Positions 13,474 to 50,903 of a stretch of 64,000 nucleotides of DNA are shown in pieces. The notes under the pieces were generated by a model. The model searched no databases. It saw only the letters and a program-made list of their open reading frames with translations, and had not been told where the DNA came from. Source of the DNA: Chaetoderma sp. LZ-2023a (lineage: Eukaryota; Mollusca; Caudofoveata; Chaetodermatida; Chaetodermatidae); assembly GCA_034401795.1 (NCBI GenBank), contig CM067367.1, positions 78,154,079-78,218,078 of the forward strand. The letters run 5' to 3'. The translations under genes were made by a program, and so were the position numbers. The first letter of the stretch is position 1. The number at the start of each line of letters is the position of its first letter.

Positions 13474-13567
13474 TTATCTTTTGCTGCTTAAACTCAAGCG
13501 CATGTTCTTCTCCATCTCAAACTGACGTTGATCTGTGCGGCTGAGGAAATCCAATCTCTCGATGTAA
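13474..13567 (-). CDS. CFDP1: CFDP1 last coding exon (BCNT-C domain end)
   Basis: Reading the minus strand, an acceptor TGTGTTTCAG precedes a T that completes a glycine codon split from the upstream exon. The exon then encodes YIERLDFLSRTDQRQFEMEK followed by NMRLSLSSKR and TAA, 30 whole codons. CFDP1/Bucentaur proteins end this way (human: YIERKAFLDRVDHRQFEIER...). The Y-I-E-R and R-Q-F-E residues are the conserved end of the BCNT-C domain. The 3' UTR presumably continues below 13474; I found no convincing AATAAA. This is the end of a chromatin-remodelling subunit homologue related to yeast Swc5. Confidence 0.95.
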
Positions 13568-22998: not shown

Positions 22999-23388
22999 AT
23001 GCCAAGACATAAAATAAGCGAGAGAGAGGAGGGTATAATTCTCCATCGTTTGAGGAGGGGAATGACGCCATCACTGATCAGAAATGAACTTTTGAAAGAA
23101 AATATCAGTGTCAGTGTGAGGACCATTTATCGCGTAAAGAATAACATCGGAAAAGAACGACAATTGACGAATCTAACACATGGAAAATCTGCTACGTTGA
23201 AAATCAGAAGAAGACGAACTGTAGTATCAAAACAAGTGATAGACAAAGCGAAGAAAATGATAGCAAGAATTAACCCACCGACACAACGTGAGATGAGCAA
23301 TCTATTAGGAATTAGTTTGGGATCCGTAAATAACACCATAAACAACTGTTATCAAGGCAAAACTGAGAAAGAAATGTTTGGTTCATAA
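22999..23388 (+). pseudogene. mariner transposase, N-terminal DNA-binding part
   Basis: Starts at ATG 22999 (MPRHKISEREEGII). The usual pair of helix-turn-helix motifs is visible: ILHRLRRGMTPSLIRNEL with VSVRTIYRVK, then PPTQREMSNLLGIS with SVNNTINN. The basic stretch LKIRRRR lies between them, as in the GRPR-like linkers of Tc1/mariner proteins. The frame runs out at TEKEMFGS and stops; the next part continues in the frame one base over. Confidence 0.88.
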
Positions 23389-25743: not shown

Positions 25744-25829
25744 CCATCTTTTCCACGATTATGTATCTTGAGATCTTCTTCAATATTAGCTTCCTGCTTG
25801 AAACTTTCCCAGTCCAGTTTAGATTTATT
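25744..25829 (-). CDS. CFDP1: CFDP1 exon (BCNT-C domain start)
   Basis: Minus strand: acceptor TTTTGTCCCAG, then 28 codons plus two bases, then donor GTGAGC. The peptide is [20 protein letters not shown] followed by KIHNRGKD and a split glycine. The human protein reads [20 protein letters not shown]...IHNRGKEG, so the WESFK core and the HNRGK(D/E)G turn are intact. The two-base overhang joins the T at 13567 to give Gly-Tyr-Ile-Glu-Arg, confirming both boundaries. Confidence 0.96.
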
Positions 25830-27531: not shown

Positions 27532-27757
27532 CAAAGTAGATATTGTTGGTTTTTTGTTAATATGACCGAGCACACTTGATAGTCCTCCACCTCCTCCTGC
27601 TCCTTTTCCAAACTTTCCAAGTTGTCCTTTCCAGTCATTGCTTATCAGACCTTTAATTGCACCTGGCGATGAACTGCTGCTTTCCAATGAACCACTGCCT
27701 TCCAAAGAACCACTGCTTTCCAACGTCAGACTAGGAGTTTCTGAATGATTTTTTTCA
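27532..27757 (-). CDS. CFDP1: CFDP1 exon with serine/glycine-rich linker
   Basis: Acceptor TATCATTTCAG, one base completing a leucine codon, then 75 codons and donor GTACGT. The first half is rich in serine, glycine and leucine (SLTLESSGSLEGSGSLESSS), followed by KGLISNDWKGQLGKFGKG and GGGGGLSSVLGHINKKPTIS. Human CFDP1 has the shorter RSSGMSSLLGKIGAKKQKMS at this place, so the SSVLGHINKK end aligns and the repetitive part is extra length. The exon is clearly coding, but the linker is probably disordered and lineage-specific. A DIRS-type retrotransposon lies only about 350 bp upstream in the next intron. Confidence 0.93.
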
Positions 27758-28142: not shown

Positions 28143-28319
28143 ATACTTACCTCCCTAATACTTTTGATATTGCTAAATATCGGCTTTCACTCAATAAAAC
28201 ACTCAGATTAAAAACAGTTAGGTGCCCCTACTGGGCAGGGAGTCAGAGGTAGTCCGGCGGATGCTCGCCCCACCACCGCGCATGCGCCGACTACTACTTC
28301 CTCTGGCTCATTTATTGGC
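28143..28319. repeat. DIRS terminal inverted repeat, left
   Basis: Runs from ATACTTACCTCCCTAATAC to CTCATTTATTGGC and is the near-exact complement of 34943-35120. Outside it a short unique end (from 28104, TAAACGAAATCTAGGATTTC) is matched in the internal complementary region. Confidence 0.92.
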
Positions 28320-28386
28320 TAACACATGCAACTACCAAGAGCCTGAAGACCGAGCCTCTGTGGGGCGGAGAGGCCGGGTCAGTATC

Positions 28387-28470
28387 TAGGGAGGTAAGTA
28401 TCAACTCTCTCGTGAAAAAAGAAATCCTAGATTTCGTTTATTTCACATCAAGAGTATACTTACCTCCCTA
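28387..28470. repeat. DIRS internal complementary region
   Basis: The first half (CTAGGGAGGTAAGTATCAAC... to about 28442) is complementary to the left outer end. The second half (TTTCACATCAAGAGTATAC...) is complementary to the right outer end. The two meet around 28441 with an overlap of about two bases, as expected for a copy of the joined ends. Confidence 0.88.
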
Positions 28471-28670
28471 ATACTTTTGATATTGCCAGAATTCGAAAGT
28501 GAATCTGGCGGGAGGGAGGCGAGGTCAAAAGACCAGCTCTTCCCTATACGCTTTCAAGCGTTTAAGGCACTTATGACGTCTGAAACTGTGTGAAAACACA
28601 GTCAGGATTTGATAAACCATCGGATAACACAACCGATGTTTGAGAGATGACCGATTTGTCATATGCGCTC

Positions 28671-28684
28671 CCCCCCCCCCCCCT
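28671..28684 (+). repeat. C homopolymer
   Basis: Short C run in the non-coding 3' part of the DIRS element. Confidence 0.6.
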
Positions 28685-29014
28685 TGGGAGGAAGATTAAA
28701 TGACCTCAATGTCCTACACGCTCTCTACGTACTAGTGCCAAGTACTATAGGACAGAGACGAAAAGGCTCCATTTTCGTATACTCTCTCTAAAGAACCACA
28801 ACCCACATAAACCATCACCATATTAATAACACTGGGTAACGTGACAATACAAACAATGAACAACACATGAACAAGACTGACCTTGTTGTACTAGGAAGCT
28901 GTCATCATGAATCCAGTAGAGAAGGATGATACAGTCCCGACAAGTGGTTGTCACCGTCGCTGAATGGCGAAGTATATAAGCAATGCGGAAGCACTCTTCA
29001 CAAACATAAAGCGG

Positions 29015-30060
29015 TTATTGTTTCAAAATCGACAAGGCGAGAGGGTTAGAGGTGTCACGGAGGTAATGGTCTGTAAAACTTGACTCACAGTGCCACTGAG
29101 CCACTGACATAATATCATCCACAGGGACCCCACTAAACAGGGCAGTGGATGCCACGACACCGCGGACACTGTGAGCCTTGGCCACGTCAACCTGTCGCCC
29201 GGTGGCGGATTTGTGACAAAATTGAATACATTCCACAATCCACCTAGAAATGGTGTCCTTAGACGCCCTACCATGGGGTTCAATATATGACAACCATAAC
29301 GCTGACTGGTCGGTACGCCACTCCGAAGTACGCTGTTTGTACCGGAGCAGCGCCCGTACGGGGCACCATACTTTAGAATTAGGATCATATCTAGTTAAAG
29401 ATGGCAAAAAAAATAGGCTGACCTGGATATTTCAATGACTGATTTTTAGACAAGAAATTAATCCTAGGTAGAAGCTTAAGGCCTTCCCCTGTAACCACAA
29501 ACCGGTCAACCTCGGCTGATAAGGCGTGAATTTCACTCCTACGCCTTGCCGAGGCCGCAGCAATTAAAAATACAGTTTTAAGAGTTAACATTTTCATAGA
29601 AATGGAACTAAGTGGTTCAAAAGGCTTATCACCTAGTACCTGGAGCACCAGTGATAAACTCCAAGACGGAATCAGTGGAGGATTCCTTGGTCTTAGATTG
29701 CCCATGCCTTTAATTAATACATTTAATGTACTTACTTCATCACTCCCCCTAATAGCCAAGCAAGGAATAACAGTCATTAAAGCTGACTTATAACCAGCAA
29801 TAGAGTTAGGCTTGAGGCTATAGGCATCATATAGGTGACAGAGGAAATCAGCCACTACCTGAATAGATGATTCCATTGGATCAATACATCTTTTTGAGCA
29901 CCATTCTGCAAATCTGTTGATTTTATAATTATATGCTCTGGAGGTTGACCCCCTCCTGGCTTTGGCCATAAACATGGCCGCTTGCTCAGAAAAGCCCTCC
30001 TTAATTCTAGATTCCTTGACAACATCCACGCAGTCAATCGGAACATTGACGGATTGTCGT
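29015..30060 (-). CDS. DIRS tyrosine recombinase region
   Basis: Fossil part. The N-terminal, SAM-like part is visible (RAYNYKINRFAEWCSKR, FLCHLYDAYSLKPNSIAGYK), followed by the catalytic fold with the SARRRSEIHAL helix and, further on, AHSVRGVVAST and FTDHYLRD, the typical Arg / His-x-x-Arg / Tyr set of lambda-integrase-like recombinases. In DIRS elements this enzyme joins the circular DNA copy to the genome. It overlaps the reverse-transcriptase region on the same strand, an arrangement known in the family. Confidence 0.85.
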
Positions 30061-32044
30061 GAAGGGCCTTGCCCTGGAAGATAAGGTTGTCCATCAGAGG
30101 CAGCGGAACCGGATTGCAGACCAGAAGGTCCAGCAGATCCGTATACCACGATCGGCTTGGCCAATCCGGGGCGATCAGAAGCACTTGGCACTCCTGCTGC
30201 CTGATTTTCTGAAGCACCTTTGGAATCAGGATTGCTGGGGGGAATGCGTATGCATACATTCCCTCCCAGCTGATAGCTAACGCATCTGTTGCGAAAGCGC
30301 TTGGGTCTGGAATCGGAGAGACGTACGTCGTCATCTTCGCATTCTTCTTCATCGCGAACAAATCTATGTTGGGTTTTCCCCAATGGTCGAACAGACGATC
30401 CGCCACACATTGATTTAGTTGCCATTCCGTGGGTAAAACACTCATCCTTCGGCTCAATGAGTCTGCTAGCAGATTTAACCTCCCCGGAATATGAACTGCT
30501 TTCAAGGTGATCCCATGATCCAGGCACCAACAAAGCAGTTTCCATGTCATCATACAGAGACTGGGCGACTTCGTTCCGCCCTGGCGGTTTATGTAAGTCA
30601 CTACTGTTGAGTTGTCTGAACGAATTAGAACAATCATGCCCTGAACTTTCTGTAAGAAATGTTCCAGGCCCAGGACTACTGCTCTTAGCTCTAGTAGATT
30701 GATATGTTCCTTGGACTGATCCAGATCCCAAAGCCCTGATACTGTGGACTCTTCCAGACAAGCTCCCCACCCCTCCATCGATGCATCTGTATACACAGTC
30801 ACCTGAGGGTGGGGAGGGGTTAGCAAAACCCCCGGCAAGAGATTCTCTGTATTCAACCACCATTGCAGGTGGTGAATCAGAGGCGCCAATACTGACACGT
30901 TCGAGTCCAGCGAACCTGAACTCTGGGTCCACTGTGTCATGAGAAACAACTGGATCGGGCGCCTGCGCAAGGCGGCCTGCGGAATGACTGGTTCCAAAGA
31001 AACCATCAAGCCCAGCATTCTCAAGTAAACCCGTGCCAGGACATGACGACTGTCGCACACCGACTGTATTACCGAGATGAGTATTTGAACCCTCTCCTGA
31101 GTGGGGTACACATACCCCGTCTCCAGATCGAAGAACATGCCCAGGTAAACAAACTTCTGGGATGGAGTTAGCTCTGATTTCGGGAAATTGATCATCCAGC
31201 CCAAGTCCGAGAGAGTTTTCAAAACAATCTCCAGATTGGCTGACAATGATTCCCGGGTGTGTGCTTTCAACAGCCAGTCGTCTATGTACGTGTGGACTGC
31301 TATGCTTCTCCTGCGGAGGTATGCAGTGATCGCGAGAACCACACGGGTGAAGACCCGAGGAGCCGTGGAAATCCCGAAGGGTAACACCCTGAATTCCCAC
31401 CGCCGGCCCTGAAATGCAAATCTCAGGAAGCGACGGAAACTCCTCTCTATGGGAATGTGGAAATAAGCATCCTTCAAATCTATTGACGCTGTCCACATTC
31501 CTCGCTCTAACCCCGCCAACACCGAGCGCACAGTCTCCATCTTGAAACTGGGCGTCTCTATGAACTTGTTCAATGGCTTGAGGTTGAGAATCGGCCTCCA
31601 CCCTCCGGTGTTTTTTGGTACTAAGAACAGGGTTGAATAAAAGCCCGGGCACCTTAGTGCCGGCTGAATGGCTCCTTTTTGTATGAGGGAATTTATTTCC
31701 TCCTCTATACACAACCTCTGATCCGGATCCCGTGGAATAGGAGTCCAGATCGGCGCGAGAGACAGTCGCGATGGCGGGCCTGTCAGCCAGTCGGGACGAT
31801 ACCCGACTGAAAGCCATCGCAAGACTAAACGGTCCTGAGTCAACCGTTTCCACTCTGGCAAGTGGCCGGCCAAACGGCCGCCCACCGGTCCACCTAGGGA
31901 TAGAGGTGGACATAAGGAGTGCCAGAGTGGCACTGTTCTCTCGGCGTGAAACACCGGAGTGGTTCCCACCGCGGTAACCAGGCCATCAGGCCCGATTACC
32001 GCGACCAGATCCCCGCGCGCCCCGCCCAGCGCCGCGCGCACCAC
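29855..32044 (-). CDS. DIRS reverse transcriptase / RNase H region
   Basis: Fossil part, about 729 codons. Reverse-transcriptase boxes in order: FLVPKNTGGWRPILNLKPLN, then the palm box ASIDLKDAYFHIPI, LPFGISTAPRVFT, and YIDDWLL at the active site (the IDDWL form is typical of DIRS, not Ty3/Gypsy). An RNase H domain follows with VTVYTDASMEGWGA, LLELRAVVLGLEHF, IRSDNSTVVTYINRQGG and VHIPGRLNLLADSLSR. No aspartic protease and no Ty3-type integrase are seen, as expected for DIRS. Confidence 0.93.
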   Translation of the reverse strand: MVRAALGGARGDLVAVIGPDGLVTAVGTTPVFHAERTVPLWHSLCPPLSLGGPVGGRLAGHLPEWKRLTQDRLVLRWLSVGYRPDWLTGPPSRLSLAPIWTPIPRDPDQRLCIEEEINSLIQKGAIQPALRCPGFYSTLFLVPKNTGGWRPILNLKPLNKFIETPSFKMETVRSVLAGLERGMWTASIDLKDAYFHIPIERSFRRFLRFAFQGRRWEFRVLPFGISTAPRVFTRVVLAITAYLRRRSIAVHTYIDDWLLKAHTRESLSANLEIVLKTLSDLGWMINFPKSELTPSQKFVYLGMFFDLETGYVYPTQERVQILISVIQSVCDSRHVLARVYLRMLGLMVSLEPVIPQAALRRRPIQLFLMTQWTQSSGSLDSNVSVLAPLIHHLQWWLNTENLLPGVLLTPPHPQVTVYTDASMEGWGACLEESTVSGLWDLDQSKEHINLLELRAVVLGLEHFLQKVQGMIVLIRSDNSTVVTYINRQGGTKSPSLCMMTWKLLCWCLDHGITLKAVHIPGRLNLLADSLSRRMSVLPTEWQLNQCVADRLFDHWGKPNIDLFAMKKNAKMTTYVSPIPDPSAFATDALAISWEGMYAYAFPPAILIPKVLQKIRQQECQVLLIAPDWPSRSWYTDLLDLLVCNPVPLPLMDNLIFQGKALHDNPSMFRLTAWMLSRNLELRRAFLSKRPCLWPKPGGGQPPEHIIIKSTDLQNGAQKDVLIQWNHLFR

Positions 32045-34062
32045 GGTGCGCGGGCGGCTGTCTGGCTGGGTGCGGCTGAGGAGCCTGCGCCCCCCTCACT
32101 GCTGGCCGAATCGCCCGTGGCCTAGGCCTACGTTGCGACGGTGGCTGGCCTCTGACCTGGCCAGCACCACCTCGAGCCTGCAGAGGACGAAACGCAGGGG
32201 GTGCCGCGCGAACACGCTCCCGCCGGAGCACCTCAAATTGCTCACGCAGCGCCCTCTGGTTGTTAACCAGAGTGACCGTCTCCTGGAGGTGCCTGCATCC
32301 CTCACCTCCAAAGAGACCAGGACCTGTCATAGGCGTCCGCAGCAGCCTATTATACAGGTCCTGGGACGGGCACAGATTGTCAAGTGCAAACGTGCGCCGC
32401 GCCCGGACACTTCTGGTCACCGCCCGCGTCAAACAGTCCAAAGCCAGGTTGATACCATCCTGAATGGCTCTCTGAACTGTTACCGGGCTTGGCTGGCGTG
32501 ATGCGGAGGCCGCTACCACCCCCTGTAGCAGCTGGGAGACGTGGGACAGAGCGGCAATCGACGCTCTCCCACTCTCCTCCGCATCACGCAGCGCGGCATT
32601 CGCCGAACGCAACGCGTTCGAGCACAAGACTCCCGTGTCAGAACGGGAGCCCGGCCGCGCATCTTCGCCTAAAGCCGCGCGATCATCAACGCTTGGCTTC
32701 GGCACCACACCGTACCGCTGGTAATCCAGGGGCACGATGCGGCAACGCTTCGCCACCCTCGCGAGGGGCCTTCGCGAGACGTCCATTAACCTTAATGGAC
32801 GCCTCCGCCGCTTCGAACATGTCCACGACATGTTCAGCCAGCGGCAGAGATGGCATAGCGGTAGCCGCCGGCCTACCAGCTAACCACGGCCTATGGTCAC
32901 GCTGGCTAGCCGGCAGCTCCACGGGTAGATCGGGCCGAACACTTACCAGCCACTGGCAAGCGTCCGACCAATCCTCCTCCGTGGCTAACTGCGAGCGCTC
33001 TACTAGACGAGGGCCTTCGTCTTCCTCCAGAGCACTCGCAGTTGACGTCGACGGCGGGTAAGCTGATACCCCTGGCAAGCCTGGAAAAGCATGCGGGCCC
33101 GAGAGAGCAGGCATGCTAAACTCCGCGGCTTGACCAGGAGCAGGCGCCGTGGCAGAGCGTGGGGTAAACACCGCTCTACCACGGGCCTGACCAGCACCAG
33201 CGATACCATCGGCAAGCCGAGGTATGCGGTATCCGTGGTCAACAGCACCGCCCGGGGACACCTTCTGGACCGTGAAATCTACTCCTGCGAGAGTAGAACC
33301 ACGGAACACGTCGCCTGTATTCCCCGCGAGGGGTGCACAGACGTCGTATTCCATGGCCACGTCCTCAGAAGGCGACCCTAGCAGGAGATCCTCTTCCTCC
33401 TGGCCAGAAAGATTAGACTCCGGGTCAGCAAAGAGAGCTAACCCGGACTGGCCAGGGAAGGTGCCATAGGAGGCTTTGACACCTTCGGCGCGCGGATACC
33501 CGGGGTCTGATGAGCAGACCGTGGGTCCCAGCAACAACCGTTGTCCACGGCCCCTCGGCGCGGCGCCATGCCTGCTGCCAGGGCCGTGGACTGCCCCCAA
33601 CAAAGGGGCCACCTCTGAATCCACAAACGGACCGGACCTAAAGAGACCGGATTCAGAGGCGGGGATCACCTGCTCGCAAGCAGATGCCGAGGACAACAAA
33701 GGAGCTGGCCCAGGGAGCATGCCGCGAAGCAACTCTGGGACCAAATCCTTTATTGTCCTCTGCATCTCTTGTAACATTTCGGACCTGAAGGCCTCCATAT
33801 CCACCGCGGATGAGGCCTTCCTCTTACCCTTCTTACAACCCTCCTTCTTCTTCTTCCTCTCTTCCTCCATCACCTTCTCCCTTGCCTGCAAAGATAAAAA
33901 CTCAGACATTAGGTCTCCCCCCCACTGCTTACATACGTCGCACTTCAGCAACGGTCCACAGGGACTGCAGCTGAAGCACAAGTGCGGAACGAAACGGTTT
34001 TTCAAAAACCTCCCGCAGGACGGGCAACCAGGTCTCTGAAACAGGACAAAGGACAGGGACAA
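31986..34062 (-). CDS. DIRS gag-like region
   Basis: Fossil part. It opens with a cysteine-rich, zinc-ribbon-like stretch (CPSCGRFL, CFSCSPCG, CDVCKQWGG), then a lysine/glutamate-rich coiled-coil-like segment (EKVMEEERKKKKEGCKKG) and a long proline/alanine/glycine-rich region. This is the usual place and style of a DIRS Gag-like protein. Sequence conservation of such Gags is low, so the call rests on position and composition. Confidence 0.7.
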
Positions 34063-34942
34063 TGAGCAAGATAGTTAAGGTTAGCGAACTCAAAACCAAC
34101 TAAAAAAGAGAGGGACAGGATCCTCAAGATCGCAAATCAAGAAGAACCAGCCTTGGACAAAACGTTAAATGTTAATAAAGGCCAAGGCCGATTATGACGT
34201 CATCACTCCTGTGACCAAATTAATCGATCCGCAACAAGCACCAAGTGCAAGAACGAATTGTATAAGTAACCGGAACATTCCCGTTGAATAGGCATATCGA
34301 GTACACAACAATCAGATATACAGAGATAACTCCTTCCAATTCTAGCATTGGCAAAAAGGGAAATTATCTCCCCTTTTGTTTATCAATAATTAGATACCTG
34401 ACACTTGTACAGACAAACCATCCAACGCGATGTACCGGAGAACTCCACCATAGTACGCCTCTACATTCTCTCCACCGAAGGGAAAGGAATTGGATCAAGA
34501 GGGCAAAGTGAGAAGACCTTTATAACAGGCCTCCAACTCACTGAACATATTCTTTTGGTTAGATAACCTAACAGTATTAGTAGGAAATGGAACCGTGGTG
34601 GAGAGAAAACATATCCTCTTGTGCCGAGAAGTCCATCAAAGCTTCTACGTGATACCTGTGGACAAAACACAAAGAGAAATGAGACTTATGAAGCACCATG
34701 TTGTAAAAAACCAACACAAACAGGCGCTAATCACGGTAAGCGCGAGTCCCGGAAATACATTAAACCGGGACAAAACACGCTAGCATATCAAAGAAGTCAC
34801 CTGATAAAGAGATCCCGCTCCTTCTAAAGGTGAATCCTCCCTTTCCGACATGCTTCCCACGTACAAGAATCGTCAAATTTGAGTAAAACACAAGGTAACG
34901 CGCAGAAAAGTATAGACAACACAAAACCGCATGTAACCCTTT
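34063..34942 (-). other. DIRS 5' non-coding region
   Basis: Leader of the element between the right terminal repeat and the gag-like region. It contains no frame that I can assign. Confidence 0.6.
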
Positions 34943-35120
34943 GCCAATAAATGAGCAAAGAGGAAGTAGTAGTCGGCGCATGCGCGGTGGTGGGGCGAGC
35001 ATCCGCCGGACTACCTCTGACTCCCTGCCCAGTAGGGGCACCTAACTGTTTTTAATCTGAGTGTTTTATTGAGTGAAAGCCGATATTTAGCAATATCAAA
35101 AGTATTAGGGAGGTAAGTAT
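34943..35120. repeat. DIRS terminal inverted repeat, right
   Basis: Complement of 28143-28319 with only a few differences, mainly around the AGCAAAGAGG word. On the minus strand this is the 5' end, where DIRS transcription starts. Confidence 0.92.
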
Positions 35121-36140: not shown

Positions 36141-36454
36141 CATCAAAATCTTATAATTGATGCAGCGTGGAAATGCCCCCGTTTTTGGCCGGTTTTTTTC
36201 GGCTTTTCTAGTAGTTATTTTTGCGGCGTACTGTACTAAGTTTCAAACAAACTTCCTTTATTCTTGAGCACCACGTAGAGGCAGGCTTGATATATATGCT
36301 ACATGTAGCAATGTGGTTGCAATGCCAATACATCGAATCAAACCGGGTACAGCTGTTATTAAAAAAAATCTGCTACATGTAAATCTGCTACACGTAATAA
36401 TCAGTGCGAAACTCTAGAAATCTGTTAGACTTGACAGAGCTACCATAATAGGTC

Positions 36455-37640
36455 TCTTAGACTTGACAAACAGGGACAAAAGGGCTAAAACTGTTACATT
36501 TGGCAAAAAAGGCAGTGAGAATAAATATGTTAAACTTGACAAACAGTGTCAGTGGGGATAAATCTGTTAAACCTGACAAACAGTGTCAGTGGGGATGAAT
36601 CTGTTAAACTTGACTAACAGTGCCAGTGAGGATAAATCTGTTAAACTTGACAAACAGTGCCATTGAGGATAAATCTGTTAAACTTGACAAACACTGCCAG
36701 TGGGGATAAATCTGTTAAACTTGACAAACAGTGCCAGTGGGGATAACTCTGTTAAACTTGACAAACAGTGCCAGTGGGGATAAATCTGTTATACTTGACA
36801 AACAGAACGTGGGATAAATCTGTTAAACTTGACATACAGTGTCAGTGGGGATAAATCTGTAAAAACTCGACAAACAATGTCAGTGGGGATAAATCTGTTA
36901 TACTTGACAAACAGTGTCAGTGGGAATAAATCTCTTAAACTTGACAAACAGTGTCAGTGGGGATAAATCTGTTAAACTTGACAAACAGTGTCAGTGGGAA
37001 AATAATCTGTTAAACTTGACAAACAGTGTCAGTGGGAATAAATCAGTTAAACTTGACAAACAGTACCAGTGGGGATGAATCTGTTAAATTTGATAAACAG
37101 TGCGTGGGGATAAATCAGTTAAACTTGACAAACAGAACCAGTGGAGATAAATCTGTTAAACTTGACAAAAAATACCAGTGGGGATGAATCTGTTACACTT
37201 GACAAACAGTGCCAGTGGAGATAAATCTCTTAAATTTGCCAAAAGAGTCAGTGCGAATAAATCTGTTATACTTGACAAACAGTGTGTGGGGATAAATCTG
37301 TTAAACTTGACAAACAGTGTCAGCGGGGATAAATCTGTTAAACTTGCCAGTGTCAGTGGGAATAAATCTGTTAACCTTGACAAACTGTACCAGTGGGGAT
37401 GAATCTGTTACACTTGACAAACAGTGCCAGTGGGGATGAATATGTTAAACTTGACAAACAGTGCCAGTGGGGGGATAAACCTGTTAAACTTGACAAACAG
37501 TACCAGTGGGGATGAATCTGTTAAACTTGACAAACAGCGACAGTGGGGGGGGATAAACCTGTTAAACCTGAGAAACAGTACCAGTGGGGATGAATCTGTT
37601 AAACTTGACAAACAGTACCAGTGGGTGAATCTGTTATACT
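36455..37640 (+). repeat. 38-bp minisatellite, about 30 copies
   Basis: Tandem units of GATAAATCTGTTAAACTTGA followed by CAAACAGTG(T/C)CAGTGGGG. Two unit classes alternate (GTGTCAG and GTGCCAG/GTACCAG), and the GATGAAT variant becomes common to the right. Single-unit deletions occur near 36805 and 37105. It continues identically to the right of the N gap (41501-41835) because of the duplication. The period is not a multiple of three and any frame through it is meaningless. Confidence 0.95.
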
Positions 37641-39239
37641 TCACATACACAGCCCTCAAAATTTGGAGCGTTCATGTGTCGGTTACGTGGAGTAAAATTA
37701 CCGTGAATGAAGAAATGGTCGCGTAAGTGACAAAGCCCAGAACGGTAGTTATCTCTGATCGTGGAAAACAGAAAAGTTTCAACAACTTTTTTATATGAAG
37801 CATGCTACATGTATTTACAACATAATTTAGCATTTTCAAACATCTAAAAGATCGATAACATCTGTCTGTCAAATTCTATAAATAAGCGACAGCGCGTATG
37901 TGTCAGAGACAAACTTCCGTTGTATTTCCGCTAGCATTACTACATAGCCCGGAAACTAGTCTCGCTACATGTTATGCATCAACAACGGACTGTTCAATTA
38001 TAAACCGTTGCATGCAAGTACGTGCAACTGTCGGCTGGCATGTTCCCGATATTATTTTATATACATGTACGCGATTGGATCCCGATATAACATAGGAAGA
38101 CATGCATTGTTGAGTGAGTCTCAAAGTATAGTCTCCTTGAGTTTCAGTTGGCTTGTTGAGACAGCTGTTTAAGAATTTATCTGTTAAATTAAACTGTTAC
38201 ATTCATAGATCCTAGCTACTGTGTCAGTGTGTATTTGTCCATGACACACAATAATTCAGGCCTCGAACCTCGACGGGATTCTTGTAATATTTCCGAAATA
38301 AAAAAATACGGGAATCCAACTGGATTCTCGTAAATAAACGCTTCCAAAAACGTAAACATTCCATTTTTACAGAACGCCACGATCCCGGTTAGTAATTTCA
38401 ACAATAAAAATACACAGGTAATGAGAAATGTCTCGCGTGACTGTACAGTCGTAGTTAATAACAATCGATAATGCGCACTCGTAGTTTCTGATTGGCTCGC
38501 GGGATATCCGATTTCAATAGGCATGAATGAAAATTACTATTGTAGTAAAATTTTGATCACGTGCCTCGTTGTCATTCATAATGAATTAATCACATGATTT
38601 ATTTCAACCAATCTCTGTGCGACTCTCGCGATTAATACTGATGACTAATGGCGAACGAAAAATCTAGTCACTGTGCCTCTTTTAAATGCAGTAAAGCAAT
38701 ATGTTAACGCCCACTTTGACGGGTTATATGACCCAATATATTATTATTGGAAGGGTCTGACAGTAATACCACCCAATATTTAAGTGGTTCATTCCTTTGG
38801 AGTGACCGAGAAAACAGGACTATATGTCAGGAAAACCGGAACTCTTATTTTCAAGTAAATCGCATTTGCACTAAATTGTCAGTTTAAAGCGTACAAGTTA
38901 AGAAGGGTCAAGCTATCTACTAAATGCCTTAGAGCCGGTTACGCTTTTTATTGTGGCGGACTTGCGGGTTATTGTTTTATATTAGAAATGTACGCTGCTT
39001 GTACAAGTACAAATATTTGGTAACAGTTACAAAAAAATCTACCCGTCACAGGTAAAATTTTATCAACATTTCAACCCCTGTTGTTTTTGGGGCAATTAAG
39101 ACGGTAGTTCTTTGATACAGGTGAAATTCTTTACAAATTAAAGCATATTCTTTTAAATATTTTGAAAATAATATGACTGGAAGCCATTGCTTTCAAGGCG
39201 GCGGTGGGTGGGCTGGAGAGGGTTGCTCAACTAGGTAAG

Positions 39240-39500
39240 CCACAACAATGTAAGATATTCTTCTTCTTCTTTTCGTTCGCTGATCATACGGCCAGTCCTA
39301 TAAGTGACTATCGACATGATCATAAGCGTTAAGTGCGTGGATCCATGGTTTATTAGTGCGCCGTGCGGCCTGGAACCTCCGTCTTCAGCACTCGAGGTTT
39401 CTGTCAGGGTTACCTCACCCTTACCTCCTTTAGTCGCCTCTTACGACACGCAGAGGATACGGAAGGTGTATTCTAAGCCCCACCTACAGGGCAAATGTAA
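39240..39500. repeat. Dispersed repeat with a GTCGCCTCTTACGACACGC word
   Basis: The block CAGGGTTACCTCACCCTTACC, AGTCGCCTCTTACGACACGC, ATTCTAAGCCCCACCTACAG has the style of a SINE or retroelement tail. I cannot assign a family. Repeated at 43440-43700 only through the duplication. Confidence 0.35.
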
Positions 39501-40397
39501 GATATTCAATTCTTTGTTTTTGTAGTGGGGTTTGGGGTTGGGGTGGGAGGAGGGTGTTACGATATTTATAAATATTGGGTCATTAGTCACTAATTATTAT
39601 AGTGGGTCTGGAATTTTGAAATATATGTTTGGAAAAAGTATGGAATTTTATTGTGCCCAAGGTGTATGAACCCTGAAATTGTTGCAAGCTGGAAAGATGT
39701 TACCAATGAGTGTTGTCATACAAATACTGATATTTTGGCAGAGAAAATGCACATTTGCACACCAAAGGAGTAATGTTTTTGGAGACTTAACACTGAATGA
39801 CTGGCTCGGTTATCAAGCTTGTAATTTCAGGGGTAAATTTTCCAAAATATTCTTCTTGGTCTGGAAATGGAACGAATGAATGGACATAAAACAAAAACTC
39901 AATCTGCTTTTTGACAAATTTACTTGAGAAATATTACAGTACTTATATCACAATGGATGAATCAACTTTTAGTTATTCCCCACCCATCTCTAGCTAAGCT
40001 ATGCTCCAAGCTTTGTCCCAGAACCTCAATTTCATGGTAACTATACAGCTAACTTGGTGAATACTTGAAACAAACTTCCCCTCAAAACAATCAACAGAAT
40101 GTTTATTAAATTGCAAAGACATACAATTAATACTTACTGACAGACTACTATGAGAGTTAGTATTGTTCGTCAGTTATAATAGTGACTGGTGACATCAACC
40201 TATATGTGATGTAATTGATTATGAGGTCAATGGTTGAGTAACTAAACATATTTTATCTGTAAATTAGGTAATTGGTGGATAAGTCCATGCTGTAATCAAC
40301 ATGCTAATGATAATTCAGCAACATGCACTTTAAATTCATTATTAACTTAATATACAGAAGAAATATGTTCAGATAAAGCAGGTTTGGATAAAAAATG

Positions 40398-40470
40398 GCG
40401 TAACCATTTTGCGCAACCAATTGGTTACGCAAACTGATTTTGCGCAACCGAACAATTGGTTACGCAGACC
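40398..40470. repeat. Iterated GCGTAACC / TGCGCAACC palindromic block
   Basis: Over 73 bp the words GCGTAACCA, TTGCGCAACCAA, TTGGTTACGCA, TTTTGCGCAACCG and CAATTGGTTACGC alternate, giving overlapping inverted and direct repeats. The duplicate is at 44597-44670. Confidence 0.7.
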
Positions 40471-40578
40471 TGAAAACATGGGACCCAAAAATGGGTCTCG
40501 CAAATATTTGAAATATTGAGGGCTGCATACAGAGCCAGCAGAGATATCGTCTGAATAAATCTATTATCGTTGACTTAC

Positions 40579-40692
40579 AGAGCCTGCGGGGAAGAACTAG
40601 ATCCAGCAGAAGACATTGCTGTTTTATCCTCTGTGATCTTCTTCAGCTCATCTTGGCCTTCTTTAGAAGCAATATCTACTTGTTTAGTTATC
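40579..40692 (-). CDS. CFDP1: CFDP1 exon, duplicate copy next to the gap
   Basis: Minus strand: acceptor CTTGTTTTTAG, one base completing an arginine codon, 37 codons, two bases, donor GTAAGT. The peptide is ITKQVDIASKEGQDELKKIT then EDKTAMSSAGSSSSPQA; human CFDP1 reads RVTKEVDATSKEAKSFFKQN here. The exon is identical to 44778-44891. It is 114 bp, divisible by three, and both copies start and end in the same phase. Splicing both in would simply repeat 38 residues. Whether two copies exist in the genome depends on the assembly question noted at the gap. Confidence 0.92.
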
Positions 40693-40733
40693 CTAAAAAC
40701 AAGAGTACATATAATTTTTTACCAGCTTGTTCA

Positions 40734-40940
40734 TTAACCCTTACCACTCTGATGTTAAAACTTTAACATTTTTAATTAAATTAAAAGATGAACTGTTGTT
40801 CATTTTTCAACAAATTTGGTTGGTGATGGTGCTGTCATAGACAGCAACATCTCCCACCAAAATTGTTGAAAAATGTCCACCAGTTCCTTTGCTATTGACA
40901 CAGTAAGATAGAATGGTGACATCAGAGTGGTAAGTGTTAA
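40734..40940. repeat. P4 element 41 bp upstream of the exon acceptor
   Basis: TTAACCCTTACCACTCTGATG at the left and ATCAGAGTGGTAAGTGTTAA at the right, with a GCTGTCATAGACAGC hairpin at the centre. In the direction of transcription it ends 41 bp before the acceptor of the exon at 40692. Confidence 0.85.
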
Positions 40941-41000
40941 TGTGAGATAAATTATCTAACTCGGTCGACATAATAGTGCCAGTGGGTAGAACGAAGAAAA

Positions 41001-41500
41001 NNNNNNNNNNNNNNNNNNNNNNNNNNNNNNNNNNNNNNNNNNNNNNNNNNNNNNNNNNNNNNNNNNNNNNNNNNNNNNNNNNNNNNNNNNNNNNNNNNNN
41101 NNNNNNNNNNNNNNNNNNNNNNNNNNNNNNNNNNNNNNNNNNNNNNNNNNNNNNNNNNNNNNNNNNNNNNNNNNNNNNNNNNNNNNNNNNNNNNNNNNNN
41201 NNNNNNNNNNNNNNNNNNNNNNNNNNNNNNNNNNNNNNNNNNNNNNNNNNNNNNNNNNNNNNNNNNNNNNNNNNNNNNNNNNNNNNNNNNNNNNNNNNNN
41301 NNNNNNNNNNNNNNNNNNNNNNNNNNNNNNNNNNNNNNNNNNNNNNNNNNNNNNNNNNNNNNNNNNNNNNNNNNNNNNNNNNNNNNNNNNNNNNNNNNNN
41401 NNNNNNNNNNNNNNNNNNNNNNNNNNNNNNNNNNNNNNNNNNNNNNNNNNNNNNNNNNNNNNNNNNNNNNNNNNNNNNNNNNNNNNNNNNNNNNNNNNNN
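41001..41500. other. Assembly gap of 500 N
   Basis: Exactly 500 N, the round size that scaffolders insert for a gap of unknown length. The sequence to its left stops inside duplicated DNA and the sequence to its right starts inside the minisatellite that already ended the left-hand array. Confidence 0.99.
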
Positions 41501-44500
41501 TTGACAAACAGTGTCAGCGGGGATAAATCTGTTAAACTTGCCAAACAGTGTCAGTGGGAATAAATCTGTTAACCTTGACAAACTGTACCAGTGGGGATGA
41601 ATCTGTTACACTTGACAAACAGTGCCAGTGGGGATGAATATGTTAAACTTGACAAACAGTGCCAGTGGGGGGATAAACCTGTTAAACTTGACAAACAGTA
41701 CCAGTGGGGATGAATCTGTTAAACTTGACAAACAGCGACAGTGGGGGGGATAAACCTGTTAAACCTGAGAAACAGTACCAGTGGGGATGAATCTGTTAAA
41801 CTTGACAAACAGTACCAGTGGGGTGAATCTGTTATACTTCACATACACAGCCCTCAAAATTTGGAGCGTTCATGTGTCGGTTACGTGGAGTAAAATTACC
41901 ATGAATGAAGAAATGGTCGCGTAAGTGACAAAGACCAGAACGGTAGTTATCTCTGATCGTGGAAAACAGAAAAGTTTCAACAACTTTTTTATATGAAGCA
42001 TGCTACATGTATTTACAACATAATTTAGCATTTCAAACATCTAAAAGATCGATAACATCTGTCTGTCAAATTCTATAAATAAGCGACAGCGCGCATGTGT
42101 CAGAGACAAACTTCCGTTGTATTTCCGCTAGCATTACTACATAGCCCAGAAACTAGTCTCGCTACATGTTATGCATCAACAACGGACTGTTCAATTATAA
42201 ACCGTTGCATGCAAGTACGTGCAACTGTCGGCTGGCATGTTCCCGATATTATTTTATATACATGTACGCGATTGGATCCCGATATAACATAAGAAGACAT
42301 GCATTGTTGAGTGAGTCTCAAAGTATAGTCTCCTTGAGTTTCAGTTGGCTTGTTGAGACAGCTGTTTAAGAATTTATCTGTTAAATTAAACTGTTACATT
42401 CATAGATCCTAGCTACTGTGTCAGTGTGTATTTGTCCATGACACACAATAATTCAGGCCTCGAACCTCGACGGGATTCTTGTAATATTTCCGAAATTAAA
42501 AAATACGGGAATCCAACTGGATTCTCGTAAATAAACGCTTCCAAAAACGTAAACATTCCATTTTTACAGAACGCCACGATCCCGGTTAGTAATTTCAACA
42601 ATAAAAATACACAGGTAATGAGAAATGTCTCGCGTGACTGTACAGTCGTAGTTAATAACAATCGATAATGCGCACTCGTAGTTTCTGATTGGCTCGCGGG
42701 ATATCCGATTTCAATAGGCATGAATGAAAATTACTATTGTAGTAAAATTTTGATCACGTGCCTCGTTGTCATTCATAATGAATTAATCACATGATTTATT
42801 TCAACCAATCTCTGTGCGACTCTCGTGATTAATACTGATGACTAATGGCGAACGAAAAATCTAGTCACTGTGCCTCTTTTAAACGCAGTAAAGCAATATG
42901 TTAACGCCCACTTTGACGGGTTATATGACCCAATATATTATTATTGGAAGGGTCTGACAGTAATACCACCCAATATTTAAGTGGTTCATTGCTTTGGAGT
43001 GACCGAGAAAACAGGACTATATGTCAGGAAAACCGGAACTCTTATTTTCAAGTAAATCGCATTTGCACTAAATTGTCAGTTTAAAGCGTACAAGTTAAGA
43101 AGGGTCAAGCTATCTACTAAATGCCTTAGAGCCGGTTACGCTTTTTATTGTGGCGGACTTGCGGGTTATTGTTTTATATTAGAAATGTACGCTGCTTGTA
43201 CAAGTACAAATATTTGGTAACAGTTACAAAAAAATCTACCCGTCACAGGTAAAATTTTATAAACATTTCAACCCCTGTTGTTTTTGGGGCAATTAAGACG
43301 GTAGTTCTTTGATACAGGTGAAATTCTTTACAAATTAAAGCATATTCTTTTAAATATTTTGAAAATAATATGACTGGAAGCCATTGCTTTCAAGGCGGCG
43401 GTGGGTGGGCTGGAGAGGGTTGCTCAACTAGGTAAGCCACAACAATGTAAGATATTCTTCTTCTTCTTTTCGTTCGCTGATCATATGGCCAGTCCTATAA
43501 GTGACTATCGACATGATCATAAGCGTTAAGTGCGTGGATCCATGGTTTATTAGAGTGCGCCGTGCGGCCTGGAACCTCCGTCTTCAGCACTCGAGGTTTC
43601 TGTCAGGGTTACCTCACCCTTACCTCCTTTAGTCGCCTCTTACGACACGCAGAGGATACGGAAGGTGTATTCTAAGCCCCACCTACAGGGCAAATGTAAG
43701 ATATTCAATTCTTTGTTTTTGTAGTGGGGTTTGGGGTTGGGGTGGGAGGAGGGTGTTACGATATTTATAAATATTGGGTCATTAGTTACTAATTATTATA
43801 GTGGGTCTGGAATTTTGAAATATATGTTTGGAAAAAGTATGGAATTTTATTGTGCCCAAGGTGTATGAACCCTGAAATTGTTGCAAGCTGGAAAGATGTT
43901 ACCAATGAGTGTTGTCATACAAATACTGATATTTTGGCAGAGAAAATGCACATTTGCACACCAAAGGAGTAATGTTTTTGGAGACTTAACACTGAATGAC
44001 TGGCTCGGTTATCAGGCTTGTAATTTCAGGGGTAAATTTTCCAAAATATTCTTCTTGGTCTGGAAATGGAACGAATGAATGGACATAAAACAAAAACTCA
44101 ATCTGCTTTTTGACAAATTTACTTGAGAAATATTACAGTACTTATATCACAATGGATGAATCGACTTTTAGTTATTCCCCACCCATCTCTAGCTAAGCTA
44201 TGCTCCAAGCTTTGTCCCAGAACCTCAATTTCATGGTAACTATACAGCTAACTTGGTGAATACTTGAAACAAACTTCCCCTCAAAACAATCAACAGAATG
44301 TTTATTAAATTGCAAAGACATACAATTAATACTTACTGACAGACTACTATGAGAGTTAGTATTGTCCGTCAGTTATAATAGTGACTGGTGACATCAACCT
44401 ATATGTGATGTAATTGATTATGAGGTCAATGGTTGAGTAACTAAACATATTTTATCTGTAAATTAGGTAATTGGTGGATAAGTCCATGCTGTAATCAACA

Positions 44501-44777
44501 TGCTAATGATAATTCAGCAACATGCACTTTAAATTCATTATTAACTTAATATACAGAAGAAATATGTTCAGATAAAGCAGGTTTGGATAAAAAATGGCGT
44601 AACCATTTTGCGCAACCAATTGGTTACGCAAACTGATTTTGCGCAACCGAACAATTGGTTACGCAGACCTGAAAACATGGGACCCAAAAATGGGTCTCGC
44701 AAATATTTGAAATATTGAGGGCTGCATACAGAGCCAGCAGAGATATCGTCTGAATAAATCTATTATCGTTGACTTAC

Positions 44778-44891
44778 AGAGCCTGCGGGGAAGAACTAGA
44801 TCCAGCAGAAGACATTGCTGTTTTATCCTCTGTGATCTTCTTCAGCTCATCTTGGCCTTCTTTAGAAGCAATATCTACTTGTTTAGTTATC
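44778..44891 (-). CDS. CFDP1: CFDP1 exon, copy contiguous with upstream exons
   Basis: Same splice sites, phase and peptide as 40579-40692. It joins the upstream exon (ending AG) to give an arginine codon: ...FDFAGEEVR then ITKQVDIASKEGQ. That junction reproduces the human order FDFAGEEVRVTKEVD, which fixes both boundaries. Confidence 0.95.
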
Positions 44892-44932
44892 CTAAAAACA
44901 AGAGTACATATAATTTTTTACCAGCTTGTTCA

Positions 44933-45141
44933 TTAACCCTTACCACTCTGATGTTAAAACTTTAACATTTTTAATTAAATTAAAAGATGAACTGTTGTTC
45001 ATTTTTCAACAAATTTGGTCGGTGATGGTGCTGTCATAGACAGCAACATCTCCCACCAAAATTGTTGAAAAATGTCCACCAGTTCCTTTGCTATTGACAC
45101 AGTAAAAGATAGAATGGTGATATCAGAGTGGTAAGTGTTAA
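44933..45141. repeat. P4 element (duplicate)
   Basis: Second copy of 40734-40940 with the same position relative to the exon. Confidence 0.85.
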
Positions 45142-45259
45142 TGTGAGTTAAATTCTCTAACTCGGTCGACATAATAGTGCCAGTGGGTAGAACGAAGAAA
45201 ATTGATGACCGCAGGCTCGATCACACAATATTTGATATCTAGGTTTCCACTCGACTATC

Positions 45260-46489: not shown

Positions 46490-46870
46490 CAATCCAGTTT
46501 TAATTGTGTCCTGTCCATCTCTAGCTAAGCTTCACCACACTGACTTTGCCCATGTTGGGATCGATCGATCCCTGTGCTCTCTGAAACCTAATTTAAACAA
46601 AAATATATAGATAGCTGTTGAATATTTTGAACCAAATTTGACTGGATGCTGTTGCTGCTTATGGCAGCAACAGTGCCCCGTTAAATTAATGTTAAAATAT
46701 TCAACAGAATGTTTATTAAATAGTAAAAACATACAATTTGTACAACTTGGCAGGCTATTAAGCATTTATGATGGACAATATTGCAAATTTCATGATGTAA
46801 TTGATTATGACATCAGCCTACATGTGACGATGTTGGTTATGATATTGTATGATTGATTGACTGGATTCAT
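46490..46870. repeat. P2 composite element
   Basis: GCAATCCAGTTTTAATTGTG..CCATCTCTAGCTAAGC, GTTGGGATCGATCGATCC, the palindrome 46614-46708 (centre CTGCTTATGGCAG), TTTATTAAATAGTAAAAAC, right end GACTGGATTCATCCACTG. It ends about 85 bp from the exon at 46957. Confidence 0.7.
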
Positions 46871-46956
46871 CCACTGATCACCTGGGAGCCAAAGTATGGG
46901 ATCATTTTATTAATTTCCTCAGGGGGGGGGGGTGTTTCGAGGCCTGTATGTAATAC

Positions 46957-47057
46957 CTGACTTCTTCTCCAGCAAAATCAAACACTTTTGTAATGGACAT
47001 CTGACCAGAGGTAGATGGCCGGACCACAGCAAGAGGTCTGGTAGGCATAGGGGAAAT
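46957..47057 (-). CDS. CFDP1: CFDP1 exon with the ITKVFDFAGEEV motif
   Basis: Acceptor GTATTTTCAG, 33 codons plus AG, donor GTATTA. The peptide ISPMPTRPLAVVRPSTSG continues QMSITKVFDFAGEEV. The motif ITKVFDFAGEEV is identical to human CFDP1 and is the strongest single identifier of the gene. A G-rich run lies 25 bp downstream in the intron (46922-46932). Confidence 0.97.
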
Positions 47058-47344
47058 CTGAAAATACATGCAGTAACAACGATGATATTTGTAAAGACAA
47101 GTTGCGGTACACATAGTGACAATCCGTCAAAATAGTTTCCAGGAATATACAGTCATGTAATCAATACACACATTTGATAGCAAGAAAGCAATACTAGAGC
47201 TAATAGTATAATCAGGAAATGCTTTTTCTCAAATTATTCTGATTCATTTCCATTTTTACCAGTGGTCGTATATCTAATACTGTAGTAAAAATGTACATCT
47301 AATACTGTAGGAAATTAACAATAAACACTATTTGCTAGTTTCTT

Positions 47345-47557
47345 TTCCATTCCTCTAAGAATGTCCATTTGCAGGGCAAGAAATGACCCTTTTGGAAATT
47401 TACAACTGGAATGACTGGCTCGATTATCGAGCCAGTTATTCCAATGGTACATGACTGTACATTTTCAAAAACAATCTTCTCTTTGCCTGCAAATGGACAT
47501 TTTCTATGAAAAAATAGAAATTTGTTTGACCAAATCTTACCAGTAAAGCGTTAAATG
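47345..47557. repeat. P1 palindromic element
   Basis: The core GGCTCGATTATCGAGCC is a perfect palindrome. The right arm contains a short extra ACATGACTGTACA. The right end is CCAGTAAAGCGTTAA; the left end is eroded. Confidence 0.7.
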
Positions 47558-47681
47558 GGCTAACCAATGCTAAAATCACATGATTATTTGAATGTGATAT
47601 ATAGTCATGATAGTACAGATTGGAAATACGTTTTAAAACATGTTTTAAATCTACCCAGTAACATGTCACATTTACTTAATA

Positions 47682-48157
47682 TAGCGTTGTTCCAATTAAT
47701 CGATTTGATCGATGATTGATTGGTTTGCATGTTCAACCAATAGATCGATCATGATTTCAGAAATCGGTTTTGACTGCTTATAAATTTACGATATTAAAAC
47801 TGCAGTTCAGATAGATGATTCTTTTTTTTGGCAGTACCATTTTTAATTTCATTTTACAACTAAATAACGTAGTATTACTCCATACGAGTCCATAGTCTAA
47901 GACATTAACCTTCACAACACTGAAATAGTACGCTAATCAAATTAGTTTCAGCTTCCAATCAAATTAGTTTCAAAATATTCAACAGATTATTTCTTAAATT
48001 ATTACGGTTAAATATCCATGAACATGCAATAATTATTGCACTCAAAACTTCAGAATGGGTAAAAATGAGAAAATCTTATGATCGATTATTAATTGATCAT
48101 CGGTTAGTATGTAAAACCAATCATCGATCACAAAAACAGTACCAATTCCCAACACTA
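47682..48157. mobile_element. hAT-type MITE with 8-bp target duplication
   Basis: Flanked by ACTTAATA at 47674-47681 and 48158-48165, a perfect 8-bp duplication. Ends TAGCGTTGTTCCAATTAATC and, from the right, TAGTGTTGGGAATTGG are imperfect inverted repeats of hAT style. The subterminal parts are rich in ATCGAT(C)AT words. A P2 half-palindrome (47935-47985) is embedded. Confidence 0.85.
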
Positions 48158-50903
48158 ACTTAATATACATGTATATGTACATGTAAGAACTGTTCTGCTG
48201 AATATTTAAACACAAGAGGCCCAAGGGGCCTGTGTCGCTCCCCTGGAGCACTATGCATTTTTGTCAAAATTTTTGGTGGGTGGTTTAGTAGTCTTTTAAA
48301 TGAGTTTGTGGACATTTTTGCAAGTCCAATATGGGGTCCTTCCCTGTCAAATCACCCAGAAAACGAGAAAATGAAACCTCACCCACTCCAATTTTGCTCA
48401 CAATTGGTATATGGGGTTACTTGGGATGAAAAAGATGATATTTCAAATTTTAGCATGATCGGACAGGTGGTTTCTGAAATACTGGCACATGCTTGAAATC
48501 AGGAAGCAGGGGAATTAAGGAATTCCACTTCCTGTCCATGGGGTTCTTGTATAATGAAAGTTTCCATTGAATATTGCACTTTTTTAGCTTCAGGTATACA
48601 TACACATGTATTTTGACCTGATTTTACAGGCTAATAAGAAATAATATACCTCAAATTTGTTTATATTATGCAGTAAACATGTTGGGCTACATTTTTCATG
48701 CAAGGTAATCTCAAAGTCATGTGATCCACAATGTCAAATTCAACGTCAAAGTAAAGGTCAAAAGGTCACCATGCTTAAAATTATCCCTACATGTATGTAA
48801 AAGATAATGGCATTTTTGGAATCCTTGTGAAATTACCTTTCTAGAAATGCCAATTTCATCAAGAGTGACCAATTGGTTGCTGAGCTATAGTCATTTGAAT
48901 ATCGGCGGCCATGCCTCTTTTGGCGAAAATCAGGGGCTGTATTTCAGAAACCACTTGTCCGATTACGCTAAAATTTGAAATATTATCTTTGTCAGCCCCA
49001 ATAACCATATATACCAATTTTTACTAAAATCGGAGGGTGTGAGGTTTCATCCATTGGGTGATCTGACACGGAATGACCCTATGGCCGCCAAACACGCTAC
49101 ATTTTGATTGATCCACTATGGCCATGTTTCTGACATAGCTCCTTCCCTTGAACAAACTTTAATGGCACTCAGTGCCTAATTATATCTCCCAAATTGCGGC
49201 CCAATCCGTTCAGCAGTTCTGGAGTTGATTTGGCAAAAAATAGGTTATCCAAGATGGCCACCAAGCCATTTGGCCAATCAAGTTCCCTTGAACAAACTTG
49301 GTGCAGCTCTTGCCCTAGATGATATTTCATGCGTTTTGAATTGATCCCCCATTTCGACCAAAATCCAAGATGGTCACCAAACAAATTGGCCGATCGACTT
49401 TGTTTGAACAAACATGGACCTCTATGCCCTAAGAATGCTTCCTGCCAAATGTACTTGAGATCGGTCCAGTGGTTCTCGAGAAGACATTTTAAATTTCCCA
49501 TTGCTTTAGTATGGGAGTTTTTGGCAGGAAAAAAATCCAAGATGGCTGCCAAACCGTTTATCCGACAGTTTAAAAAATGGGAAATATGAAATCAGAATAC
49601 GCACAAACATATATAAACCCAATTTCGGCCTCAAAATCCATCAAATAAAAAATCCAATATGGCCGCCAAGCATACTACATTTTGATTGATTAGTACACGG
49701 CGGCTATGTTTTTTGACGGATTACCTTTGCTTGAACAAACTTTCATGGCCTTTAGTCTCCAATAATATCTCCCCAATTTCGGCCTGATCACTTCAGTGAT
49801 TCTAGAGAAGTCGTTTTCTGGAAAACTAGGTCATCCAAGATGGCCACCGAACCATTTGGTCAATCAAGTCCTCTTGAACAAACTCGGCTTACATCTTGCC
49901 CTAGATGATGTTTCATGAGTGTTGAATCGATTCCCCCAGCAGTTTCGGAAAAGAAGATTTTGAAAGATGTTTCCTAAAATCGGCTGAAATCCAAGATGGC
50001 CGTCGGGAAAATTGGCCAATCGGGTTCATTTGAACAAACTTGGATCCCTATTCCTTACGGATGCCTCCTGCCCAATTTAATTGAAATCGGCCTAGTAGTT
50101 CTCGAGAAGACATTTAAAATTTCCCATTGCTTTAGTATGGGAGCCTTTGGCAGGAAAATAATCCAAGATGGCTGACAAACTGTTTATCCGACAGTTTCAA
50201 AAATGGCAAATTTGAGCTCAGAATAGCCAAAAACATATATAACACCAATTTTGGGCCCAAAACCATTCAAGTAAAAAAATCCAATATAGCCGCCAAACAC
50301 ATTACATTCTGATTGGCCCACGGCGGCCATGGTTTTGACAGATCAACTTTCTTTGAACAAACTTTAATGGCCCTTCGTCCCTAATCATATCTCCCGAAGC
50401 TGGGTCTGATCCCTTTAGCGGTTCTCGAGACTAAGTCGTTTTCGGGAAGAATAGGTTATCCAAGATGGCCGCTGAACCATTTGGTCAATCAAGTCCTCTT
50501 GAACAAACTTGGCTTACCTCTTGCCCTAGATGATGTTTCATGTGTTTTGAATCGATTCCCCAAGCGGTTTCGGAGAAGAATATTTTTAAAGATGTTTCCT
50601 AAAATTGGCCGAAATCCAGACTGGCCGCCTGCCAAATTAGCCGATCGGGTTCATTTGAACAAACTTGGATCCCTATGCCATAAGGATGTTTCCTGCCATA
50701 TATAACTGAAATCGGCCTAGTAGTTCTCAAGAAAGAAATTTTAAATTTCCCATTAATTTAGTATGGGAGCATTTAGCGAGAAAATAATCCAAGATGGCCA
50801 CCAAACCATTTATCGACAGTTTCGAAAATGGCAAATTTGAGCTCAGAATACGCAATAAACATATACAGTACAGCTCAGAGTTAACTTAACGTATGAATGG
50901 GTC

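What the first reader, a model, noticed from the sequence alone, without database searches (positions are those of the whole stretch)
37307..45201. An in-frame CFDP1 exon present twice around a 500-N gap
Two segments of about 3.7 kb match nearly base for base on either side of exactly 500 N. Each carries the same 114-bp CFDP1 exon, with the same splice sites and phase. Copy one is continuous with downstream exons, copy two with upstream exons, and the first runs into the gap while the second starts mid-minisatellite. That is what two haplotypes laid end to end would give. If real, the gene would encode a repeated 38-residue block just after the ITKVFDFAGEEV motif, or two alternative identical exons.
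Basis: partly seen in the sequence, partly recalled or inferred. Interest (0 to 1): 0.8.

Follow-up and report, generated by a model that had tools for sequence, protein, structure and literature searches.

The report
Assembly artefact duplicating a CFDP1 exon
Two neighbouring pieces of this genome assembly overlap by 3.7 kb but were laid end to end with a filler gap instead of being merged, so one exon of an ordinary gene appears twice when the animal most likely has it once.

Summary
37307-41000 and 41501-45201 match at 99.19% over 3,703 columns around the window's only N run, exactly 500 N. Both carry the same 114-bp CFDP1 exon, minus strand, identical splice sites and phase. The match ends on the last base before the gap and begins on the first base after it: a dovetail. 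The other end of the same 132.6-kb contig meets another 500-N gap with the same pattern: 10,087 columns at 99.59%, from that contig's first base to 16 bases short of the gap. A third gap, on another scaffold, showed no overlap in the flanks fetched: 2 of 3 gaps examined overlap. The four other CFDP1 exons modelled are each hit once in the 2.44-Gb assembly. The copies differ by 0.51% substitutions, as alleles may, and human CFDP1 aligns to one block only. Conclusion: an unmerged heterozygous contig overlap causing a false exon gain, a known assembly error. A real tandem exon duplication is not excluded without reads; I give it about 2%.

The parts
37307..41000 (.). Copy one: last 3,694 bases of the left contig, running to the gap
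   Evidence: Self-alignment 99.19% with 41501-45201
41001..41500 (.). Gap of exactly 500 N: scaffolding filler (inferred: probably no sequence is missing here)
   Evidence: Only N run in the window; 3 of 3 gaps in 307.5 kb of this assembly are exactly 500 N
41501..45201 (.). Copy two: first 3,701 bases of the right contig
   Evidence: Self-alignment
40579..40692 (-). CFDP1 114-bp exon, copy one
   Evidence: Splice sites and phase; first part aligns to human CFDP1 just after ITKVFDFAGEEV
44778..44891 (-). CFDP1 114-bp exon, copy two (same letters)
46957..47057 (-). CFDP1 upstream exon with ITKVFDFAGEEV, one hit in the assembly
27532..27757 (-). CFDP1 downstream exon (GGLSSVLGHINKKPTISTL), one hit in the assembly
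25744..25829 (-). CFDP1 BCNT-domain exon (KSKLDWESF), one hit in the assembly
13474..13567 (-). CFDP1 last exon with stop codon, one hit in the assembly
36453..37649 (.). 37-bp minisatellite, 32.5 units, left contig
   Evidence: Tandem Repeats Finder
41501..41847 (.). Same minisatellite cut by the start of the right contig, 9.3 units
37650..40525 (.). High-copy DNA transposon with 15-bp terminal inverted repeats (CAGCCCTCAAWATTT) and a likely 6-bp target duplication CATACA (read from the edges), in copy one
41848..44724 (.). The same transposon insertion in copy two, same flanks

Best explanation
It is an unmerged heterozygous overlap between two contigs. The assembler built the left contig from one haplotype through the minisatellite, the transposon, the exon and 308 bp beyond; it built the right contig from the other haplotype, starting inside the minisatellite. 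Because the haplotypes differ by about 0.5% and the stretch is repeat-rich, the overlap was not merged. A scaffolder then placed the contigs in order and put 500 N between them, so 3.7 kb and one CFDP1 exon are written twice. Shown: the dovetail geometry, the fixed filler, the same pattern at the contig's other end, one hit each for the four other exons modelled. Inferred: that the two versions are alleles, why the assembler stopped there, and that the scaffolder was a Hi-C tool.
For: (1) The match ends on the last base of the left contig and begins on the first base of the right contig. (2) All 3 gaps found in 307.5 kb examined are exactly 500 N. (3) The other gap bounding the same contig (C9:78061971-78062470) also has a dovetail: 78051873-78061954 against 78062471-78072555, 10,087 columns at 99.59%. 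(4) All 6 hits of the CFDP1 protein search (14 candidates scored) lie in this window, and only the copied exon is hit twice; one BCNT-domain hit (10 candidates scored). (5) Differences are led by substitutions: 19 against 6 indels here, 37 against 5 at the other gap (34 and 7 by BLAST), 0.51% and 0.37%. (6) At the other gap the differences cluster in patches with long identical tracts, as mosaic haplotypes would give. (7) The two transposon copies differ at 15 of 2,869 positions compared, while the other copies among the 40 candidates scored in each search match at 97% or less. (8) Collapsing the overlap gives one intact in-frame reading with one block, as in human CFDP1.
Against: The third gap (C1:50027299-50027798) shows no match between 27.3 kb left and 12.2 kb right of it, so the error is not at every join. 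No reads, depth, k-mer counts or RNA were available, and genome-wide heterozygosity was not measured. A larger true duplication with the gap inside it could also give a dovetail. Only 13 of 19 substitutions here and 17 of 37 at the other gap are transitions, so the second set does not look typical of neutral polymorphism. Patchiness is seen at the other gap but not here. The last 16 bases of the left contig at the other gap do not align. The two-copy model scores only slightly worse against human CFDP1, 110.4 against 111.3 bits, and yeast Swc5 aligned the block in two places, the first very weakly (7.6 bits).
Confidence: 0.95

Rival explanations
1. A real, recent tandem duplication of about 3.7 kb or more inside CFDP1, giving a repeated 38-residue block or two identical alternative exons, with the assembly breaking in it.
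For: The copied exon would splice in frame twice. Divergence of 0.51% would fit a young duplication. The bucentaur gene family has reported tandem gene duplications in ruminants (titles seen only in a reference list). Yeast Swc5 aligned the block at two places, residues 151-186 (7.6 bits) and within 197-289, a very weak hint that the region can hold repeated motifs.
Against: A duplication of just 3.7 kb needs both contigs to end exactly at its edges. A larger one needs more CFDP1 sequence hidden in the gap, and would not explain the separate dovetail at the other end of the same contig. No further copies were found elsewhere among the candidates scored. The two-copy model gains nothing against human CFDP1 or yeast Swc5.
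Confidence: 0.02
2. Overlap of two contigs kept apart by sequencing or consensus errors (homotype duplication) rather than by allelic differences.
For: Same geometry. Ko et al. (PMC9516828) name sequencing errors as a minor source of false duplications (abstract; classification in section 17). At the other gap 20 of 37 substitutions are transversions and sit in clusters, which errors could also give.
Against: Differences are led by substitutions in both overlaps, and 13 of 19 here are transitions; long-read errors tend to be indels (recalled).
Confidence: 0.03

Closest known systems
Heterozygous overlap between primary contigs (purge_dups, Guan et al. 2020, PMC7203741; abstract and part 1 of 2 of the text read)
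   Same: Allelic contig ends both kept in a primary assembly, matching suffix to prefix, which the paper says harms scaffolding and gene annotation
   Different: Read depth, which that tool uses, was not available here
False exon gain from a false duplication (Ko et al. 2022, PMC9516828; outline with abstract and sections 8 and 17 read)
   Same: An exon of one gene falsely duplicated within that gene, with a scaffold gap between the copies
   Different: Shown there with reads and a second assembly; here with sequence geometry only
CFDP1 / bucentaur (BCNT) family, PF07572
   Same: The gene matches the family and the human protein and shows one BCNT-domain hit in the assembly
   Different: No difference studied beyond the false second exon; N-terminal exons were not modelled

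Membership tests
Heterozygous contig overlap | Suffix of one contig matches prefix of the next, same orientation, up to both contig ends | tested here: met
   37307-41000 against 41501-45201, both ends flush with the gap
Heterozygous contig overlap | Gap between the copies is a scaffolding filler | tested here: met
   3 of 3 gaps seen are exactly 500 N
Heterozygous contig overlap | Divergence of allelic size | tested here: inconclusive
   0.51% here and 0.37% at the neighbouring gap, led by substitutions; consistent, but genome-wide heterozygosity was not measured
Heterozygous contig overlap | About half (haploid) read depth on both copies | not testable with these tools
   No reads held
False exon gain (Ko et al.) | Exon duplicated within one gene with a scaffold gap between the pair | tested here: met
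False exon gain (Ko et al.) | Low depth, discordant read pairs, absence of the copy in a better assembly | not testable with these tools
   No reads and no second assembly held
CFDP1 / BCNT | BCNT domain PF07572 above the gathering score | tested here: met
   79.6 bits against a cut-off of 22.2 for a spliced peptide (78.9 with the block twice)
CFDP1 / BCNT | One copy of the block after ITKVFDFAGEEV, as in human CFDP1 | tested here: inconclusive
   Human CFDP1 aligns to one copy only, but the score difference between models is small, 111.3 against 110.4 bits; only one animal relative was compared

The most novel reading that the evidence does not exclude
A real, very young tandem exon duplication in CFDP1, possibly a polymorphism of one haplotype, adding a 38-residue repeat directly after the ITKVFDFAGEEV motif of a chromatin-remodelling subunit.
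Probability: 0.02. Interest if true: 0.35.

Novelty: not a real feature. Interest (0 to 1): 0.07.

Why it matters
Mainly as a caution. This assembly shows unmerged overlaps at 2 of the 3 scaffold joins examined, so gene models near its 500-N gaps may contain false exon or gene gains. Gene-family or exon-duplication counts from this genome should be screened by cutting at N runs and testing contig ends for dovetails.

Tried and rejected
Considered and rejected: two independent insertions of the same transposon as the cause of the match. The copies also share the minisatellite tail, the 53 bp between transposon end and exon, the exon, 308 bp of intron and a nested insert. Considered as evidence and dropped: identity of the exon copies, because at 19 substitutions in 3,350 bp no change in 114 bp is expected about 52% of the time; and the in-frame double exon, because a 114-bp symmetric exon gives that for free. 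Paper searches: 'CFDP1' with 'exon duplication' found 0 papers; 'bucentaur' with 'intramolecular repeat' found 0. The organism was not identified.

Full report
Observation. The window has one run of N, 41001-41500, exactly 500 long. 37307-41000 and 41501-45201 align over 3,703 columns at 99.19%, with 19 substitutions (13 transitions) and 6 indel events; outside the minisatellite there are 19 substitutions in 3,350 aligned bases, 0.57%.

The gene. On the minus strand, exons at 47057-46957, 44891-44778 and 40692-40579 (the copied exon), 27757-27532, 25829-25744 and 13567-13474 splice in frame to the C-terminal part of CFDP1, ending in a stop codon. An acidic and a DLWSSFL-bearing candidate N-terminal exon lie near 55.7 kb and 54.2 kb and were not modelled. 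A spliced peptide (without the 27.6-kb exon) matches PF07572 at 79.6 bits, or 78.9 bits with the block twice, and human CFDP1 in the PDB. The full one-copy and two-copy models score 111.3 and 110.4 bits against human CFDP1, which aligns to one block only, and 41.9 and 41.0 bits against yeast Swc5. In one search yeast Swc5 aligned the block at two places, residues 151-186 (7.6 bits) and within 197-289 (32.7 bits for that whole stretch). That is too weak to argue from, but it is told here.

What the copied stretch is made of. From left: the tail of a 37-bp minisatellite; a transposon at 37650-40525 with 15-bp terminal inverted repeats and a likely 6-bp target duplication CATACA, ending 53 bp beyond the exon's 5' splice site; the exon; and 308 bp of intron. 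The transposon family is common: among the 40 candidates scored in each of two searches, dozens of copies at 91-97% identity appear across the genome. This copy carries a nested insert of roughly 200-230 bp (about 39261-39493), which is missing in the 4 of 6 other copies whose fetched stretch spans that place; the other 2 do not reach it. The two copies in the window share the insert, the edges and the flanks, so they are the same insertion. The repeat-rich content and the truncated minisatellite would explain why an assembler stopped here; that step is inferred.

Geometry and context. The match is flush with the last base before the gap and the first base after it: a dovetail of contig ends. 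The assembly is held (2,438,752,110 bases in 2,753 sequences; window at C9:78154079-78218078). I fetched 100 kb on each side, then 3.5 kb more. The only other N run is C9:78061971-78062470, again exactly 500 N, at the other end of the same 132.6-kb contig. It shows the same pattern: the left contig's last 10,098 bases, bar the final 16, match the right contig's first 10,085 bases at 99.59% over 10,087 columns. There are 37 substitutions there (17 transitions, 20 transversions) and 5 indels in a global alignment; per 500 columns they fall as 10, 3, 8, 5, 1, six bins of none, 1, 9, then none. In 40 kb of C1 one more 500-N gap was found, with no match across it on either strand. So 3 of 3 gaps in 307.5 kb are 500 N and 2 of 3 show an overlap. 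The seven short loci from elsewhere in the genome (L003-L008, L015, about 26 kb) had no N run. Within the 264 kb around the window, one other pair of near-identical stretches over 300 bp turned up, 1,679 bp at 98.7% about 60 kb apart and not at a gap: high identity alone does not prove alleles; the flush contig ends are what matters. Fillers of 500 N are described for Hi-C scaffolds in two papers of which I saw passages (PMC10421919; PMC12879420); which tool was used here is unknown.

Copy number. A CFDP1 protein search of the whole assembly gave 6 hits (14 candidates scored), all in this window: four exons once each and the copied exon twice. PF07572 gave one hit. A DNA search with 39300-40730 found two full-length matches, both in this window; the other hits cover essentially the transposon only (40 of 5,926 candidates scored). 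The right contig's unique flank, 46850-48900, had one full-length match, itself; its other hits are partial repeats. The same check for the left flank did not complete.

Verdict. This fits a heterozygous overlap as described by the authors of purge_dups (PMC7203741), with a false exon gain as described by Ko et al. (PMC9516828). The real-duplication reading is left at about 2%, because a larger duplication with a gap inside would also look like a dovetail and no reads were available.

Noticed in passing
window 28143-35120: A DIRS-like retrotransposon in a CFDP1 intron: inverted repeats of about 180 bp at its ends, 98.3% identical, an open frame with a reverse transcriptase domain (PF00078, 85.8 bits; an RNase H match below cut-off) and an overlapping frame whose C-terminal part looks like a tyrosine recombinase (recalled likeness; no Pfam hit). 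Higher GC than its surroundings.
   Followed up: partly
window 37650-40525: High-copy DNA transposon with 15-bp terminal inverted repeats CAGCCCTCAAWATTT and a likely 6-bp target duplication, ending 53 bp from a splice donor; other copies scored are up to 97% identical.
   Followed up: partly
C9:78051873-78072555 (L038, L016, L017): A second, larger unmerged contig overlap of 10 kb around another 500-N gap, with differences clustered in patches and 20 of 37 substitutions being transversions.
   Followed up: yes
C9:78240754-78242432 and C9:78300323-78302001 (L028, L034): A pair of 1,679-bp stretches at 98.7% identity about 60 kb apart, not at a gap; probably a recent mobile element.
   Followed up: no
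window 61099-61866 (-) and 23342-24091 (+): Open frames of Tc1/mariner-type transposases: the first with PF01498 and PF13358, the second by likeness only, without a Pfam hit at the threshold used.
   Followed up: partly
window 21161-21655 (-): Fragment of a reverse transcriptase (PF00078, 30.7 bits, just over the cut-off).
   Followed up: no
window 49361-50239 and 49987-50865: Tandem pair of about 880 bp at 84% identity, period about 626 bp, with no gap.
   Followed up: no
L039 7299-7798 (C1:50027299-50027798): A 500-N gap with no match between its flanks in the stretch fetched: a counter-example to the pattern.
   Followed up: yes
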